Assembly (NCBI GenBank): GCA_025964255.1
Contig: JAOPZF010000264.1
Span: 1-42,571 of the forward strand
Source: Solirubrobacterales bacterium
Lineage (GTDB): Bacteria; Actinomycetota; Thermoleophilia; Solirubrobacterales; 70-9
Direction of reading: 5' to 3'
Length of the DNA stretch: 42,571 nucleotides
Of this stretch, positions 10,331 to 29,876 are shown in pieces (within the stretch, counting starts at the first letter, position 1; every line of letters begins with the position of its first letter). The notes below the pieces were generated by a model, which saw only the letters and a list, made by a program, of their open reading frames with translations, searched no databases and had not been told where the DNA came from. Position numbers and translations under genes: made by a program.

Positions 10331-11013
10331 GCGTGCGGGTGGTGGGCCTCGACGCGGCGGAGCTCAAAGCTCTGCGGAAGGACCCGGAGTACCGGGGCGG
10401 GCCGGTGATCCTGGATGGGATTGGCGGGGGCGAGGATCCAGGGACCCCCTCACTCACGAACAGCGTGGAGGTTCGTTCGGGGGTCCCTGGATCCTCGCTC
10501 GTGGGCGCCGATGTGGCTTCGTTGCTCGCCGCGATCGAGCGACTGGGGAGTCCCGTTGTCTTTGTGGCGGCGGGGAGGCTCGGTGCCGGAGGGCTTGCGC
10601 TCGGCTGCGTTTGCGTGGCGACTTACGTTGGGGCGGACGCCGAGGTCGGAGCGATCGATCCGGCCGGGACGCTCGCCCTCGGGCTTGCCGGGCGACTCAC
10701 CGACCGCGTAGGGCCCGCGGCCGCTGCGCGGCTGCTGCTCGATTCGACACCTTCGTCCCAAACCTTAGACCTTGGTAACCCAGAGGGCGACAAAGGTCTA
10801 AGGGTTGCCGTCGGACTCGGCTTGGTGCGGGTTGCGGACGATCCGCTCGCGCACGCCCGGGCCCTCGCCGAGCGGCTCACGGACCCCGCGGGCAGGCTCC
10901 TCACCCGCTCGCTTGCCTTCGCCGCTCGCAGCACTCCCGCACAGGCAGCCGCCTACGACGCCGAACTTCTTGCCCTGCTCGACCAACGCGACGACCCGCA
11001 GACCGACCGATAG
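10327..11013 (+). CDS. Divergent crotonase-fold protein carrying two inserted palindromes
   Basis: A 228-residue protein with a recognisable crotonase middle: GSPVVFVAAGRLGAGGLALGC near 74-94, the oxyanion-hole segment, then a DAEVGAIDPAG stretch. The GGCEL glutamate is replaced by leucine/alanine residues, so canonical hydratase activity is doubtful. Two segments encoded by palindromic DNA (about residues 35-57 and 146-159) interrupt the fold where crotonases have none. Reading frame and context are kept: ATGA overlap with the hydratase upstream and E1 alpha 9 nt downstream. It may be a decaying paralogue or a noncatalytic partner subunit. Confidence 0.65.
   Translation: MSVRVVGLDAAELKALRKDPEYRGGPVILDGIGGGEDPGTPSLTNSVEVRSGVPGSSLVGADVASLLAAIERLGSPVVFVAAGRLGAGGLALGCVCVATYVGADAEVGAIDPAGTLALGLAGRLTDRVGPAAAARLLLDSTPSSQTLDLGNPEGDKGLRVAVGLGLVRVADDPLAHARALAERLTDPAGRLLTRSLAFAARSTPAQAAAYDAELLALLDQRDDPQTDR
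10431..10497. repeat. Palindromic insertion 1 inside the crotonase-like gene (19-bp perfect arms)
   Basis: Arms 10431-10449 (CGAGGATCCAGGGACCCCC) and 10479-10497 are exact reverse complements. In the 29-nt spacer, ACGAAC (10457-10462) and GTTCGT (10472-10477) can pair as an inner stem. The element lies in frame and encodes roughly EDPGTPSL to GVPGSSL. Such a perfect 19-bp inverted repeat inside a coding region is unusual and suggests an inserted palindromic element. Confidence 0.85.
10763..10803. repeat. Palindromic insertion 2 inside the crotonase-like gene (11-bp arms)
   Basis: CCTTAGACCTT (10763-10773) and AAGGTCTAAGG (10793-10803) are perfect reverse complements with a 19-nt loop. The flanking AA/TT extends the pairing after one bulged G. 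It is more AT-rich than the surrounding gene, which supports insertion. Unlike palindrome 1 in sequence, but in the same gene. Confidence 0.7.
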
Positions 11014-13103: not shown

Positions 13104-13342
13104 GGATCGAAGTCAAGCTTCCGCAGCTGAGCATGGGCATGAGCGACGCCGACGTCATCGAGTGGATGGTGGCCGTGGGCGACAAGGTCGAGGAGGGCCA
13201 GGAGATCGTCGAAATCGAGGCCGAGAAGGCACGCACCGCGGTCCCCTCCCCCGCCGCCGGCACCGTCGTCGAGATCGTCGCCCAGCCCGAAGACACGATC
13301 GAGGTGCAGGAGGTTCTCTGCCACCTCGAAACCGAGTCGTGA
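13100..13342 (+). CDS. Stand-alone lipoyl-domain protein (N-terminal part of a split E2)
   Basis: An 80-residue protein consisting of one biotinyl/lipoyl domain. Lys43 in EIEAEKARTAVPSP is the lipoylation site, and PAAGTVVEI plus EVLCHLE complete the barrel. It starts at ATG 13100, overlapping the E1 beta stop (ATGA), and its TGA overlaps the GTG start of the E2 catalytic gene (GTGA). In most bacteria this domain is fused to the E2 acyltransferase. Here the two are separate genes in different frames. It would carry acyl groups from E1 to E2. Confidence 0.88.
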   Translation: MRIEVKLPQLSMGMSDADVIEWMVAVGDKVEEGQEIVEIEAEKARTAVPSPAAGTVVEIVAQPEDTIEVQEVLCHLETES

Positions 13343-14088
13343 GCGCCGAGAGGGCGCCGGGCGCGACCGGCGCGGGCGCCGTGGAGGCGCCCCACTTCGA
13401 GGACCCGCGGGGCGAGCCGCAGCGGGAGAAGCCATCGCGGATCCAGCGGACGATCGCGGCGCGGATGCTCGAGGTGAAGAACACCGTGCCGGAGTTCACG
13501 GTCTCCGACGAGATCGACATGGAGCCGGTGACGAAGATCCGCGCCGCCTGGGACCGCGACGATCCCGACCGGCCCTCGGTGAACGACTTCATCGTCAAGG
13601 CCGCCGCGCTGACCTTGAAGGAGCACCCGACCCTGAACGGCTCGTGGACCGACGAGGGGATCGAGCGCTATTCCCGCGTCAACGTCGGCATCGCCGTGGC
13701 GGCGCCCGGCCTCCTCCTCGTGCCGACGATCTTCGACGCTGACCGGCTCGACCTCACGGCCCTCGCCCGCGAGTCCCGCCGCCTCGCGGCCGCGGTCCGC
13801 GAGCGCTCGATCCAGCCCGCAGAGCTATCCGGCGCGACCTTCACCGTCTCCAACCTCGGCATGTTCGGCATCGCCGACTTCGAGGCGATCATCGCCGCCC
13901 CCCAGGCCGCGATCCTCGCCGTCGCCGCCGCCCGCGAAACTCCGGTAGTGAAGAGCGGCACGCTCGTCCCCGGCATCCGCATGTCCGCCCGCCTAGCCTC
14001 CGACCACCGCCTCGTCTACGGCGCCGACGCGGCGGCGTTCATGCGCGACCTCCGCACCCGCCTCGAGTCCCCCGCCGACTGGGCCTAG
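13339..14088 (+). CDS. 2-oxoacid dehydrogenase E2 acyltransferase, catalytic domain only
   Basis: A 249-residue E2 core: KPSRIQRTIAARM opens the catalytic domain, followed by VNVGIAVAAPGLLLVP near 115-130 and FTVSNLGMFGI near 171-181, with the active-site histidine in SDHRLVYGADAA near 219-230. Most E2 enzymes have an Asp in the DHRxxDG position; here it is Tyr. No lipoyl domain and no recognisable peripheral-subunit-binding domain precede the core, only a short Ala/Gly/Pro-rich stretch. GTG 13339 overlaps the upstream TGA. It is the last gene of the operon. No E3 gene is present in the window. Confidence 0.88.
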   Translation: MSAERAPGATGAGAVEAPHFEDPRGEPQREKPSRIQRTIAARMLEVKNTVPEFTVSDEIDMEPVTKIRAAWDRDDPDRPSVNDFIVKAAALTLKEHPTLNGSWTDEGIERYSRVNVGIAVAAPGLLLVPTIFDADRLDLTALARESRRLAAAVRERSIQPAELSGATFTVSNLGMFGIADFEAIIAAPQAAILAVAAARETPVVKSGTLVPGIRMSARLASDHRLVYGADAAAFMRDLRTRLESPADWA

Positions 14089-14230
14089 TCCAGGGCCGTT
14101 GCCCGCCGCCGCCCGTCCGAGGTGCGTCCCGGGCGTCTCGTGGCGGCCCGGGCAAGGCCGTAGCCGCCGCTTGGCGTCGAACGTCATAGGTCCTCATGAG
14201 TTCGGGACCCTTTGCGGGGAGGCGAGTAAA

Positions 14231-14334
14231 AGCGTTCGTCGCTTGTACCCCTATACGGCTACAAGCGACGAACGCCAGGTCCCGGCGCCTGAAGATGACG
14301 GGAGGAAGCGTGACGTTCCATGGGTCTTCGTCAC
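14231..14334 (+). repeat. Two-hairpin repeat element, copy A
   Basis: The 45-nt core (14231-14275) is a palindrome: a 16-bp stem GCGTTCGTCGCTTGTA paired with its complement around a 13-nt loop. A 59-nt tail follows (14276-14334), ending in a second stem, CGTGACG/CGTCACG, with a 13-nt loop. Copy B at 22247-22350 (opposite strand) matches the core at 44 of 45 positions and the tail without gaps, about three quarters identical. Both copies sit between convergent genes. Weaker similarity extends about 30 nt upstream of the core. Confidence 0.9.
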
Positions 14335-14370
14335 GGGACTGGGCGCCAGCTTCCCGGCGCCGACGAAAAA

Positions 14371-14454
14371 GCCGGCGCGCGGTCGGAGGAGAGAGTGGCC
14401 GCGCGCCGGCTGGGTGGCACCCGCCGGGCCCGGGGTATGGGCCCGGCGGGTGCC
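14371..14454 (-). terminator. Tandem hairpins downstream of the substrate-binding protein gene
   Basis: On the minus strand, 17 nt after the stop at 14472, a perfect 16-bp GC-rich stem forms from 14416-14431 (GGCACCCGCCGGGCCC) and 14439-14454 with a 7-nt loop. It is followed by a 10-bp stem (14371-14380/14401-14410). No U-run follows, as is usual in high-GC actinobacteria. Likely the terminator or 3'-stabilising structure of the Liv operon. Confidence 0.7.
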
Positions 14455-14471: not shown

Positions 14472-15992
14472 TCAGCCTTCTTCTTGGACTTCCTGGTAGT
14501 TCTTCGGTTCGCCTTCGTAGTTGTAGATCGGGCTGGCGGCTTTCCATTCGCCCGTTTCACTGCCCGACGCGCCGGTGTATTCGAACATTCCGGCGGCCTG
14601 GTACGGGAAGGCCTTTTCGACGCCTTCCATCTTGCCTTCCACACCCTTCATCAGGAGCGGCCAGTTGGAAGTGTAGGAGTGGGCGGCGATGTTGATGGTC
14701 GCCCGGTTCAGGCCACCTTTCATCCGTGCCGCGTCCTCGAGCACCTGGGTGAAGTCCCAGGCCCACCACCAACCGTTGGCGTACTGGGCGTTGCTCGCTT
14801 CGAGGCCCTGGGCCTTCAGCGTTTTTTCGTACAGCGCCACGTATTCCGGCGCTTCGACGTCGTTGTCACCCGGGACCGAGTAGTAACGAGTGGTGAAGGA
14901 CCCGTTGCCGGTCGCCCCCGCTTCGAGCAGCGGCGCGTAGGTGGTCGAGATCTGGGCGCAGGTGTTCGGGGTGATGACCACCGGCTTCCAGGAGCTCTTT
15001 TCGATTTCCGCCAGCGCCTCGGTGCAGTACGTGCCCGCGACGTTGAGGATCACCACCGGCGCCTTGGTCGCCGCCGCCGTCGTGATCTGGTTCTTGATCG
15101 ACGGCGCCGTCGCCGCGAAGATCTCGTTGCCGACGATCTTCATCTTCGAGCCTTTGGCGGCCCGTTCGTAGTTGCTCGCGTACGATTCGCCGAGGTCGCC
15201 TTCCATCGTGATCATCACGGCTTCGTTGTCTTCGGGGTATTTTTCTTCGAGGAATTCCTGCCACACTTCGGTTTCGTTGTAACGGTCGATCCCGAAGCCG
15301 GTGGTCCAGGGGTAACCCTGCGGATCGAAGAATTCACCGTCGGAGGTCGCAACCATGTACTGGCCTTCGCAGCCTTTGTTCATCGTGTCGCGCACCGCGA
15401 GGTTGTTCGGCGTGCCGAAGACGGCGAAGCTGGTCGCGTAGTCACCGGACTGCATCGCCTTGTTGACGTTCTGCGCCGTGATCGCCGGTTCGTACTGGTC
15501 GTCCATGATTTCGTATTCGATCTTTCGACCGTCGACGCCACCATTTTCGTTCAGGTAGTCGAAGTAGCTCTTGGCGCCGTCCTCGATCGCACCGTACGCG
15601 GCCAACGCTCCGGAGTGCGGCGCACTGGTGAACAGTTTGATCGAGCTTTCGGTGATCCCCTGGTTGATGTTCCAGTTACTCGGACATTTGGAGAGGTCGA
15701 CGCTGAAGTTGCCGGGCCCTTCGTAGACGCATTCGTTCGACGAGGACTGGCCCCATTCTTCGACGCCTTCGTTCGGTTCCGGCATCCCTTCGATCGCTTT
15801 CGGTGCCCCCGAGATCGGTTCGCCGCCCCCACACTGGGTCGACCCTCCGCCACTGCCGCCGGAGCTCGCCGACGCGGTGGTGCTCGATCCGGAAGTCGAG
15901 CTCGAGCTGGTCGCGCCACAGCCCGCGACGGCCAGCACCCCGACCACCCCGAGTGCGACGATGAGACACAGGGGTCTCGTGATTGCCCTCAT
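14472..15992 (-). CDS. ABC transporter substrate-binding lipoprotein (Liv/branched-chain type)
   Basis: Extracytoplasmic binding protein for the adjacent Liv-type importer. The 506-residue precursor has a signal peptide with lipobox LAVAGC (Cys about 25), then a Ser/Gly/Thr-rich linker to about residue 52 and a two-lobed periplasmic-binding fold. It is longer than classic LivK. Six cysteines beyond the lipid anchor may form disulfides. Glutamate is encoded by GAA in about 43 of 47 cases, whereas neighbouring genes use mainly GAG, a sign of special translational selection or a separate origin. It is the last gene of the operon and followed by strong hairpins. The ligand is unknown; the regulon context suggests the pathway substrate rather than leucine. 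Confidence 0.9.
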   Translation of the reverse strand: MRAITRPLCLIVALGVVGVLAVAGCGATSSSSTSGSSTTASASSGGSGGGSTQCGGGEPISGAPKAIEGMPEPNEGVEEWGQSSSNECVYEGPGNFSVDLSKCPSNWNINQGITESSIKLFTSAPHSGALAAYGAIEDGAKSYFDYLNENGGVDGRKIEYEIMDDQYEPAITAQNVNKAMQSGDYATSFAVFGTPNNLAVRDTMNKGCEGQYMVATSDGEFFDPQGYPWTTGFGIDRYNETEVWQEFLEEKYPEDNEAVMITMEGDLGESYASNYERAAKGSKMKIVGNEIFAATAPSIKNQITTAAATKAPVVILNVAGTYCTEALAEIEKSSWKPVVITPNTCAQISTTYAPLLEAGATGNGSFTTRYYSVPGDNDVEAPEYVALYEKTLKAQGLEASNAQYANGWWWAWDFTQVLEDAARMKGGLNRATINIAAHSYTSNWPLLMKGVEGKMEGVEKAFPYQAAGMFEYTGASGSETGEWKAASPIYNYEGEPKNYQEVQEEG

Positions 15993-20786: not shown

Positions 20787-21592
20787 ACCGGCCTCGGCCT
20801 CTCGGCCTCGTTCCCGGTTCGCTCAGCGGCAAGCGAGCTCTCGTCACCGGTGCCGGGACCGGGATCGGCCGCGGCATCGCGATCCGCCTGGCGGAGCTCG
20901 GTACCGACGTCGTCGGCGTCGGCCGGCGGGTCGAGCCGCTGATCGAGACCGGTTGCCTCGCGGCCGCGGCGACGGCGGGGACGACCACGGGTGGTTTCTC
21001 GTGGCGAGCTCTCGACCTACGGGACAGAGACGCGGCGACGGCCGCGGTGGCGGAGGTCGCCGGCGCGGGCGGTCTCGACCTCCTCGTCAACAATGCGGGC
21101 GGCCAGTTCATCGCTCCCGCGACCGAGATCTCCGACCGCGGCATGGCTGCCGTGCTCGACCTGAACCTGACCGCGGTGGCCAACCTGACCCGGGCGGCGC
21201 GGCCCTCGCTGGCGGAGAGCGGCGGGACGGTGGTGACGATCTCGCTCTCCTCGCCCGAGCGCGGGATCACCGGCCTTGCCCACTCGGCGACCGCCCGCGC
21301 CGCCTTCCTCGCCCTCACCCGCCGACTCGCCGGCGAGTGGCGCGAGGGCGGGATCCGCCTCTACGGCGTCGCGCCGGGAACCGTCTTCACCGACGGCGTC
21401 CGCGGCGAGATGTCGGCGGAGGCGCTGCAAGAGACCCTCCGCAACACGCCCCTCCGCACCGACACCGCGACCTGGGAGATCGCCGAGTGGGTCGCCGCGC
21501 TCGCCGCCGGCGTCGGCCCCCTTCCATCCGGCACCGTCCTCCAACTCGACGGCGGCGCCGGCATCCACGGCGTCGAGGGGCTGACCGGATGA
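20783..21592 (+). CDS. SDR family protein of the trans-2-enoyl-CoA/2,4-dienoyl-CoA reductase type
   Basis: A 269-residue SDR fold with TGAGTGIGRGIA (22-33). It departs from classical SDRs at the active site: YxxxK is replaced by AHSATARAA near 166-174. NNAGGQFIAPATEIS (103-117) plus this HSxxAR segment and LAGEW match my recollection of peroxisomal trans-2-enoyl-CoA reductase (PECR) and its bacterial relatives, which lack the classical Tyr. It would reduce a double bond in an unsaturated acyl-CoA intermediate. Coupled to both neighbours by 4-nt overlaps. The substrate is not known. Confidence 0.78.
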   Translation: MNRPRPLGLVPGSLSGKRALVTGAGTGIGRGIAIRLAELGTDVVGVGRRVEPLIETGCLAAAATAGTTTGGFSWRALDLRDRDAATAAVAEVAGAGGLDLLVNNAGGQFIAPATEISDRGMAAVLDLNLTAVANLTRAARPSLAESGGTVVTISLSSPERGITGLAHSATARAAFLALTRRLAGEWREGGIRLYGVAPGTVFTDGVRGEMSAEALQETLRNTPLRTDTATWEIAEWVAALAAGVGPLPSGTVLQLDGGAGIHGVEGLTG

Positions 21593-22212
21593 GCGCCCTC
21601 GCCGCCGACGCCCTCGCCGGGATCGCGGTCGCGGTGGCGCCGAACGCCGCCGCCGAAGAGACGGGTGCGGCCGCGACGCTGACCGACGGCCTGATCGCGC
21701 TCGGCGCGAATCTGGTCACCGACGAGGGGCCGGTCGACCTGGCCGTCGTCGCGATCGACGGCGTCGGCCGGCGATCGAATCCCGATGAGCCGCAGCCGGT
21801 CGCGGCACGCGCGCTCGACGCCTCCTATCCGCGACCGGTCACGGCTCCCCCGCTCGATGACGCTGATCCGCAGCCGGTCGCGGCACCCTCGCTCGACGCC
21901 GCCGCGGATGGAACGCTCGCCGCGGGACTCACCGAGGCTTTCGCCGCCGCGCGTGACGCGTTCCCGCGCTTACGCCCGGGCGGGTGCCTGCTCTTCGTGC
22001 TCGCCGACGCCTCGGCCGACCATGCCGACACCGATCCGGCCCGCGCCGCGATCGGCTCGCTCACCCGCACCCTCGCGCTCGAGTGGGCCCCGGGGCGCCG
22101 GGTCAACGCGCTCATCTGCGCTCGGCCCGAGGACGCAATCGAGGTGGCCGCGCTGATCGCCTGGCCCGCGTCGCGGACCCTTACCGGCGCGGTGCTCGAC
22201 CTCGTCGCGTGA
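21589..22212 (+). CDS. Unknown protein with SDR-like C-terminus and three tandem 13-residue repeats
   Basis: A 207-residue protein, no family recognised with confidence. The C-terminal part (RAAIGSLTRTLALEWAPGRRVNALI, about 150-174) resembles the helix-strand after the active site of an SDR, and TLTGAVLDL resembles the usual end. The glycine-rich cofactor motif and catalytic residues are absent. Residues about 66-104 are three 13-residue repeats (DEPQPVAARALDA type). It starts at ATG 21589 overlapping the upstream stop. It may be a degenerate SDR acting as a partner subunit of the preceding reductase. Confidence 0.6.
   Translation: MSALAADALAGIAVAVAPNAAAEETGAAATLTDGLIALGANLVTDEGPVDLAVVAIDGVGRRSNPDEPQPVAARALDASYPRPVTAPPLDDADPQPVAAPSLDAAADGTLAAGLTEAFAAARDAFPRLRPGGCLLFVLADASADHADTDPARAAIGSLTRTLALEWAPGRRVNALICARPEDAIEVAALIAWPASRTLTGAVLDLVA
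21784..21900 (+). repeat. Three tandem 39-bp in-frame repeats
   Basis: Units 21784-21822, 21823-21861 and 21862-21900 each encode a 13-residue segment of pattern xxPxPVxAxxLDx. Units 1 and 3 are nearly identical and unit 2 is more diverged. Because 39 is a multiple of three, copy-number change would keep the frame. Confidence 0.85.
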
Positions 22213-22246: not shown

Positions 22247-22350
22247 CGTGACGAAGGCTCCTGAAACGTCACGGTTCGTCCCGTCTCCTTCATGCCTCGG
22301 AATACGGCGTTCGTCGCTTGTAGCCGTATAGGGGGACAAGCGACGAACGC
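22247..22350 (-). repeat. Two-hairpin repeat element, copy B
   Basis: Read on the minus strand, the 45-nt palindromic core (22306-22350) differs from copy A at one position. The 59-nt tail (22247-22305) aligns to copy A without gaps and keeps the second CGTGACG/CGTCACG stem. It lies between the convergent ends of the gene ending at 22212 and the TetR gene ending at 22410, filling most of that intergenic space. Confidence 0.9.
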
Positions 22351-22409
22351 ACTGTCCCGACCCTCCGCGAAGGGTGCCGGGACACGTGCGGAACTGTGAC
22401 GGTCCGCGG

Positions 22410-23075
22410 CTACTTCGGCGGCTGGAGGGCGGCGAGGGACATCGTCACGAAGTCCTCGCCGATTGCCGAAAGCGATTCTTTGCCGGAGGGGACGTACCAG
22501 CGGTGCATCCAGTTGAACATGCCGATGATCCCGAGGACGGCGACCTGGGGGCGGATGTCGTCGCGGAATTCGCCCGACTTCATGCCTTCGGAGACGATTT
22601 TGGTGAGGACGCGGCCGTAGGAGTCGGCGTTGGCGCGAATTTCGTCGGCCTCGGGCCCGGACATCACTTTGTGGATGTTCTCGGAGAGGAAGATGAAGAG
22701 CGTCGGGTGCTCCTCCAACAGGTGGAGGTACTCCCGCAGCGACGCGACCAGCTTCTCTTCGGCGGGAATCTTCTCGGCCGCCACTTTTTTGAGGCTCGCG
22801 GTGACCGCGGCGATCGGATCCTCGAGCAAGGCGACGAGGAGCTCCTCCTTCGTCCCCACGTAGTAGTAGAGCGTCGCCCGGCTGATCCCGACCTCCTGCG
22901 CGACGTCCTCGAGGCGCGCCTGGCTGTACCCGAGACGCCTGAATACCTCGGCGGCCGCCGTGAGCACGTCTTGCCAGCGCTCGTCCGAGCGTCGGCCCTC
23001 CGCCTCGCGCCGCTCGGCGCGTCGGCGACCGATCTCGCTCGGCGGCTCCTCCTCTTGCTTTCGTTTGGTCGGCAC
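22410..23075 (-). CDS. TetR family transcriptional regulator, candidate repressor of the whole cluster
   Basis: A 221-residue regulator. A charged N-terminal extension of about 32 residues precedes the helix-turn-helix region (about 36-83), where LEDVAQEVGISRATLYYYVGTKEELL is the diagnostic TetR segment. The remaining 135 residues form the helical ligand-binding domain. It starts at GTG 23075, which lies inside operator site 5. No Shine-Dalgarno is visible, so it is probably leaderless and autorepressed. As the only regulator among 30 kb of genes sharing the 18-bp motif, it is the obvious candidate to bind it. The effector is probably an acyl-CoA intermediate, by analogy with KstR2/FadR-like TetR proteins. 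Confidence 0.88.
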   Translation of the reverse strand: MPTKRKQEEEPPSEIGRRRAERREAEGRRSDERWQDVLTAAAEVFRRLGYSQARLEDVAQEVGISRATLYYYVGTKEELLVALLEDPIAAVTASLKKVAAEKIPAEEKLVASLREYLHLLEEHPTLFIFLSENIHKVMSGPEADEIRANADSYGRVLTKIVSEGMKSGEFRDDIRPQVAVLGIIGMFNWMHRWYVPSGKESLSAIGEDFVTMSLAALQPPK

Positions 23076-29833: not shown

Positions 29834-29876
29834 GATGGGCCGAAAACCAGTCAGATAGTCCGGTTTTCGGCCCATC
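29834..29876 (-). terminator. Hairpin terminator downstream of the crotonase gene
   Basis: Arms 29834-29848 (GATGGGCCGAAAACC) and 29862-29876 are a perfect 15-bp inverted repeat with a 13-nt loop, starting 10 nt after the crotonase stop at 29887 on the minus strand. There is no U-run. It separates the acyl-CoA dehydrogenase/crotonase unit from ribBA. Confidence 0.7.

What the first reader, a model, noticed from the sequence alone, without database searches (positions are those of the whole stretch)
14231..14334. Two-hairpin repeat present twice, inverted, each time between convergent genes
Copies at 14231-14334 (+) and 22247-22350 (-) share a 45-nt palindromic core differing at one position and a 59-nt gapless tail with a second conserved stem. 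Weaker similarity continues upstream. Conservation of both stems, tail length and the convergent-gene setting suggests a mobile or selected structured element, perhaps a bidirectional terminator or 3'-end RNA structure. No transposase or known repeat family name fits from memory.
Basis: seen in the sequence. Interest (0 to 1): 0.8.

Follow-up and report, generated by a model that had tools for sequence, protein, structure and literature searches.

The report
Genus-wide composite hairpin repeat family
The two hairpins are decayed copies of a large, apparently undescribed family of composite palindromic repeats that fills the spaces behind genes in six species of one uncultured bacterial genus, behaves like small mobile DNA, and is not accompanied by the enzyme that moves the known elements of this kind.

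Summary
The two ~104-nt copies are real, inverted, and lie between convergent genes. The same genome holds about 20 full copies and ~20 partial ones. They are central pieces of a composite unit: two inverted terminal hairpins (conserved loop CACAGCCTGCC[A/C]GG, different stems) 230-840 nt apart, with interchangeable central hairpins and a GTGACGTTCC...CTTCGTCAC module between them.
The loop occurs 62-311 times in each of six species of genus 70-9 (Solirubrobacterales), never in six other species of that genus, and at most once per genome elsewhere in the class. Adjacent loops face -/+ in 69 of 70 cases. Terminal stems covary strongly (91% paired; 17 of 18 pairs with double changes). Units favour convergent gaps (odds 7.4) and avoid divergent ones (odds 0.1). 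Orthologous sites are occupied in one species and empty in another, in both directions.
No Y1/RAYT transposase or TnpB was found in the genus. The hairpins lack T-tracts. Best reading: non-autonomous, REPIN/BIME-like mobile repeats tolerated at gene 3' ends, mover unknown.

The parts
14232..14275 (+). Copy 1: central hairpin GCGTTCGTCGCTTGTACCCCTATACGGCTACAAGCGACGAACGC (16-bp stem)
   Evidence: ~20 homologous full copies in the genome
14276..14334 (+). Copy 1: 59-nt tail ending in the module GTGACGTTCCATGGGTCTTCGTCAC (14310-14334)
   Evidence: degenerate form of the module found in 49 stretches of named genomes, all from MAGs of genus 70-9
14183..14231 (+). Copy 1: upstream arm (GTCATAGGTCCTCATG...), homologous to GTCACAGGTCCTCATG... 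of other copies
14113..14170 (+). Copy 1: left end motif (CCGTCCGAGGTGCGTCC) and decayed left terminal hairpin (intact arm 14126-14146, other arm degenerate)
   Evidence: compared with intact copies
14341..14353 (+). Copy 1: right end motif GGGCGCCAGCTTC; the right terminal hairpin that precedes it in complete units is missing here
22307..22350 (-). Copy 2: central hairpin
22247..22306 (-). Copy 2: tail with module GTGACGTTTCAGGAGCCTTCGTCAC (22248-22272)
22351..22400 (-). Copy 2: upstream arm; no terminal hairpins remain
29834..29876 (+). Another central hairpin type of the same system (GATGGGCCGAAAAC...GTTTTCGGCCCATC), alone in a tandem gap
13339..14088 (+). Gene left of copy 1: 2-oxoacid dehydrogenase acyltransferase
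14472..15992 (-). Gene right of copy 1: periplasmic binding protein (Peripla_BP_6); called start 15947
21589..22212 (+). Gene left of copy 2 (weak SDR-like match)
22410..23075 (-). Gene right of copy 2: TetR-family regulator

Best explanation
The two copies are truncated members of a non-autonomous, mobile composite palindromic repeat. A complete unit has two inverted terminal hairpins with one conserved loop and different stems at the two ends, bracketing one or more interchangeable central hairpins and GTCAC/GTGAC-rich spacers. Units are copied to new places by an enzyme acting in trans that I infer recognises the folded hairpins through their loops, so stems may drift as long as they pair. 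Insertions survive mainly just behind stop codons, upstream of the next promoter, which produces the convergent and 3'-end bias. Shown here: unit anatomy, copy number, loop conservation with stem covariation, positional bias, occupied and unoccupied orthologous sites, and restriction to six species of one genus. Inferred: transposition, trans-acting enzyme, loop recognition and selection as the cause of the bias. Any effect on 3'-end formation or mRNA stability is secondary and untested.
For: About 20 full copies at 77-96% identity in the own genome. Loop CACAGCCTGCCMGG: 62, 311, 64, 83, 307 and 193 copies in six genus members, 0 in six others, at most 1 in any genome outside the genus among 399 class genomes. 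69 of 70 neighbouring loops face -/+, always with different stems at the two ends. Terminal stems: 104 sequences, 91% paired, 17 of 18 pairs with double changes, 487 double-change cells against 180 in shuffles. Context: convergent odds 7.4 (P 3e-16), divergent odds 0.10 (P 2e-9); in tandem gaps the unit lies nearer the upstream stop (median 101 nt) than the next start (272 nt). Occupied sites with an unoccupied orthologue in another species, in both directions: G000 vs G005, G005 vs G000, G006 vs G000 and G008, G008 vs G000 (cases 1-4). Solo, truncated and re-combined modules.
Against: No mover identified: Y1_Tnp absent from 12 genus genomes searched or held, TnpB absent, RT and IS110 genes present in some but not tracking the repeats. 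No target-site duplication could be defined because flanks have diverged. No ORF-bearing autonomous form was seen. Occupied and unoccupied sites could also arise by loss or by recombination.
Confidence: 0.68

Rival explanations
1. Host-selected 3'-end elements: bidirectional (possibly Rho-dependent or actinobacterial-type) terminators or mRNA 3'-end stabilisers, multiplied because they are useful.
For: Strong convergent/3' bias; long stable stems on both strands; stem covariation.
Against: No T-tract after the hairpins; case 6 site already has a conserved T-tract terminator; six species of the same genus have none; orthologous gaps do without them. The bias is equally expected from selection against promoter disruption.
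Confidence: 0.18
2. A canonical REPIN/REP system moved by a RAYT transposase.
For: Inverted doublet of palindromes, extragenic, high copy, compensatory stem changes, as in REPINs (PMC3116915).
Against: No Y1_Tnp match in any of 12 genus genomes although the same search finds it in control genomes and elsewhere in the order; the two ends are 230-840 nt apart instead of ~71 nt; stems are 16-24 bp.
Confidence: 0.04
3. A large structured RNA gene (~500 nt) present in many copies.
For: Many stable hairpins and covariation.
Against: Hundreds of copies at gene 3' ends, modular swapping, no Rfam match at gathering level and only sub-threshold ones for a complete unit, no fixed internal architecture.
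Confidence: 0.04
4. Old intergenic sequences homogenised by recombination or gene conversion, without transposition.
For: Near-identical terminal hairpins within a species; hairpin loop flipped in place in L011.
Against: Unoccupied orthologous sites in both directions between species and absence from the other half of the genus require gain or loss of whole units.
Confidence: 0.06

Closest known systems
REPIN (REP doublets forming hairpins; PMC3116915)
   Same: Two inverted palindromic ends with a spacer, extragenic, high copy, compensatory changes in pairing, singlets as likely remnants
   Different: The two ends have different stems; spacer 230-840 nt with swappable hairpin modules (REPIN GI distance 71 bp); no RAYT found in the genus
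BIME / REP mosaics (PMC2817692)
   Same: Mosaic arrays of palindromes in alternating orientation, intergenic
   Different: Longer stems, conserved large loops, no REP tag established, no RAYT
GTAG/CGTC-tagged REPs (PMC3733652)
   Same: CGTC families also lack a dedicated transposase; dimers in opposite orientation, often heterodimers
   Different: CGTC REPs have 8-9 bp stems, 4-5 nt loops and a short unpaired tail; these have 16-24 bp stems and a 14-nt conserved loop
MITEs
   Same: Non-coding, inverted ends, many copies, occupied and unoccupied sites
   Different: Ends are themselves hairpins with covarying stems; no parental IS and no target duplication shown

Membership tests
REPIN/REP (RAYT-dependent) | Palindromes in inverted doublets, extragenic, high copy | tested here: met
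   69 of 70 pairs -/+; 62-311 loops per carrier genome; almost none inside genes
REPIN/REP (RAYT-dependent) | Associated RAYT (Y1/IS200-like) transposase gene | tested here: not met
   PF01797: 0 of 12 genus genomes; found in controls and in other families of the order. Genomes are drafts, 78-100% complete
REPIN/REP (RAYT-dependent) | Short palindrome (20-40 bp) with GTAG or CGTC tag at one end | tested here: not met
   Terminal hairpins are about 50-60 nt; CGTC occurs at the foot of one end type, inside the paired stem
MITE | Inverted terminal sequences and no coding capacity | tested here: met
   Inverted ends with the same loop but different stems; no ORF-bearing form seen among fetched units
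MITE | Target-site duplication and parental IS | tested here: inconclusive
   Flanks too diverged at the orthologous sites; no parent found
Intrinsic terminator | GC-rich hairpin followed by T-tract | tested here: not met
   No terminator-like hit at either element (sequence)
Known Rfam RNA family | Match at gathering score | tested here: not met
   None in the window; only sub-threshold matches in a complete unit

The most novel reading that the evidence does not exclude
A new class of composite mobile DNA moved by an unrecognised, non-Y1 enzyme that reads the loop of a hairpin and needs only pairing, not sequence, in the stem, so that stems are free to diverge between the two ends and between species.
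Probability: 0.3. Interest if true: 0.78.

Novelty: new variant of a known kind. Interest (0 to 1): 0.6.

Why it matters
High-copy palindromic repeats of the REP/REPIN type are mostly tied to RAYT transposases. Here about a thousand terminal hairpins in six related species show the signs of mobility and strong selection on pairing without any such enzyme being found, while the other six species of the genus have none. That contrast makes the search for the mover, and for any cost or benefit at gene 3' ends, directly testable.

Tried and rejected
Rfam: no family. Exact palindrome pattern in named genomes: none (the own genome may be left out there). Viral contigs and plasmids: none. The periplasmic-binding-protein neighbour could not serve for a site comparison because no clear orthologue was found in the genus. 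Candidate movers Y1_Tnp, RVT_1, IS110, TnpB and rve: none tracks the repeats. The gene caller is home-made (codon-usage ORF scoring); the stretches of relatives were partly chosen because they hold the repeat, so the multi-species context odds are less clean than the own-genome ones (which themselves include contigs chosen for holding copies).

Full report
Observation. The two copies exist as described. Copy 2 aligns to copy 1 without gaps over 104 nt at 85% identity, E 6.6e-27; the 44-nt palindrome differs at one base. Gene calls place each between convergent genes (Pfam names). RNA folding gives the long stem on either strand; z-scores are -3.6 and -4.3 for the two strands of copy 1 and -2.7 and -2.3 for copy 2, so copy 2 is less exceptional than copy 1.

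Copies in the genome. The window is contig C189 of a 4.0-Mb draft genome (90.9% complete, 6.5% contamination, 277 contigs). The 136-nt query finds about 20 full-length copies and about 20 partial ones, some with only the palindrome, some with only the tail.

Lineage. A degenerate form of the tail module scanned over 84,980 named species genomes hits only contigs titled Actinomycetota SZAS-9, SZAS-10, SZAS-14 and Solirubrobacterales bacterium 70-9. The genus name 70-9 is my inference from these titles; the unnamed set only says 'same genus'.

Complete unit. Complete copies are bounded by two terminal hairpins whose loop reads CACAGCCTGCC[A/C]GG, in inverted orientation. Among fetched stretches 69 of 70 neighbouring loops are -/+, 227-844 nt apart, and in all 69 the stems at the two ends differ. 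Many of these stretches were fetched because such a pair had been seen there, but the genome-wide list of positions shows the same alternation. The interior holds one to three central hairpins and spacers rich in GTCAC/GTGAC (346 seen against 53 in mononucleotide shuffles). Window copy 1 keeps a decayed left terminal hairpin and the right end motif; copy 2 has lost both ends.

Distribution. Exact loop counts: G000 62, G005 311, G006 64, G007 83, G008 307, G011 193; none in G001-G004, G009, G010. Among 399 class genomes no genome outside the genus has more than one. In a recA tree the six non-carriers group together (82/97 support) and the carriers are unresolved; in a seven-taxon rpoB tree carriers and non-carriers separate (99/100). 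One gain, or one loss in the non-carrier group, suffices.

Selection on pairing. In 104 distinct terminal hairpins 91% of stem cells pair (shuffles 65%, slid partners 34-45%), and 17 of 18 pairs show double changes while the loop stays constant; the loop was the search key, so its constancy is partly by construction. At one orthologous site (case 6) the hairpin differs by a double change that keeps the pair (GTTGATGGG/CCCATCAAC against GTTGGTGGG/CCCACCAAC).

Position. In 699 kb of the own genome, stems of 13 bp or more occur in 17 of 43 convergent, 18 of 169 tandem and 2 of 86 divergent gaps of 50 nt or more (this hairpin search is not limited to this family). Terminal hairpins over six species sets: 51 convergent, 36 tandem, 4 divergent gaps against 133/332/181 overall; convergent odds 7.4, divergent odds 0.10. 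In tandem gaps the unit is nearer the upstream stop (median 101 nt) than the downstream start (272 nt).

Occupied and unoccupied sites. Cases 1-4 are orthologous gene pairs that carry a unit in one species and a gap of 15-217 nt without one in another: G000 against G005, G005 against G000, G006 against G000 and G008, G008 against G000. In case 3 the unit lies between the stop codon and a promoter-side region that is conserved in all three species. Case 5 (G006 against G005, 720 against 33 nt) carries a unit plus other hairpins. Case 6 is different: both species have a hairpin there, next to a T-tract terminator that both share. The direction of change (insertion or loss) is not proved for any single site; the reciprocity across species is what argues for gain.

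Mechanism. I infer copying of whole units by an enzyme in trans and loss of most copies that hit genes or promoters. The usual enzyme for such repeats, a Y1/RAYT transposase, gave no match in the 12 genus genomes. TnpB is absent, RT occurs in one carrier and one non-carrier, IS110 in two of each, and rve transposases are spread over carriers and non-carriers in low number. No T-tract follows the hairpins, so simple intrinsic termination is not supported; Rho-dependent termination or mRNA protection remain possible.

Known relatives. The design is closest to REPINs (PMC3116915) and BIMEs (PMC2817692); CGTC-tagged REPs (PMC3733652) also lack a dedicated transposase but have much shorter stems and loops. 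It works like these, but fails the tested RAYT and tag criteria, so I do not file it as a member. Five paper searches found no description of these repeats in Solirubrobacterales; only open-licence papers were searched, so 'undescribed' is limited to that library.

Limits. All genomes are draft assemblies and the repeats often lie at contig ends, so counts are lower bounds. No expression data exist here.

Noticed in passing
window 10431-10498; also L129, L180, L181, L118, L186, L095: A second hairpin class with a conserved ~34-nt loop (CGAACCTCCCCGC[A/T]GTTCGTGAG) inside a ~20-bp stem that is different in every copy, in several species.
   Followed up: partly
L011 1563-1604: Central hairpin whose inner loop is flipped (GCCGTATAGGGG instead of CCCCTATACGGC) within unchanged flanks, as if the hairpin had inverted in place.
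   Followed up: no
L177 15450-15570: Three tandem hairpins with different stems; two share the loop GTTGCCATAGGAC.
   Followed up: no
Interiors of 68 units: GTCAC/GTGAC pentamers are about 6.6 times enriched over mononucleotide shuffles, possibly protein-binding arrays.
   Followed up: partly
Genus of the window, 12 genomes: Carriers have assemblies of 3.8-4.7 Mb, non-carriers 2.4-3.4 Mb.
   Followed up: no
window 10759-10807: Hairpin CAAACCTTAGACCTTGG...CAAAGGTCTAAGGGTTG resembling others in L131 and L172.
   Followed up: no
window 14370-14454: Two very GC-rich hairpins without T-tract between copy 1 and the next gene.
   Followed up: no
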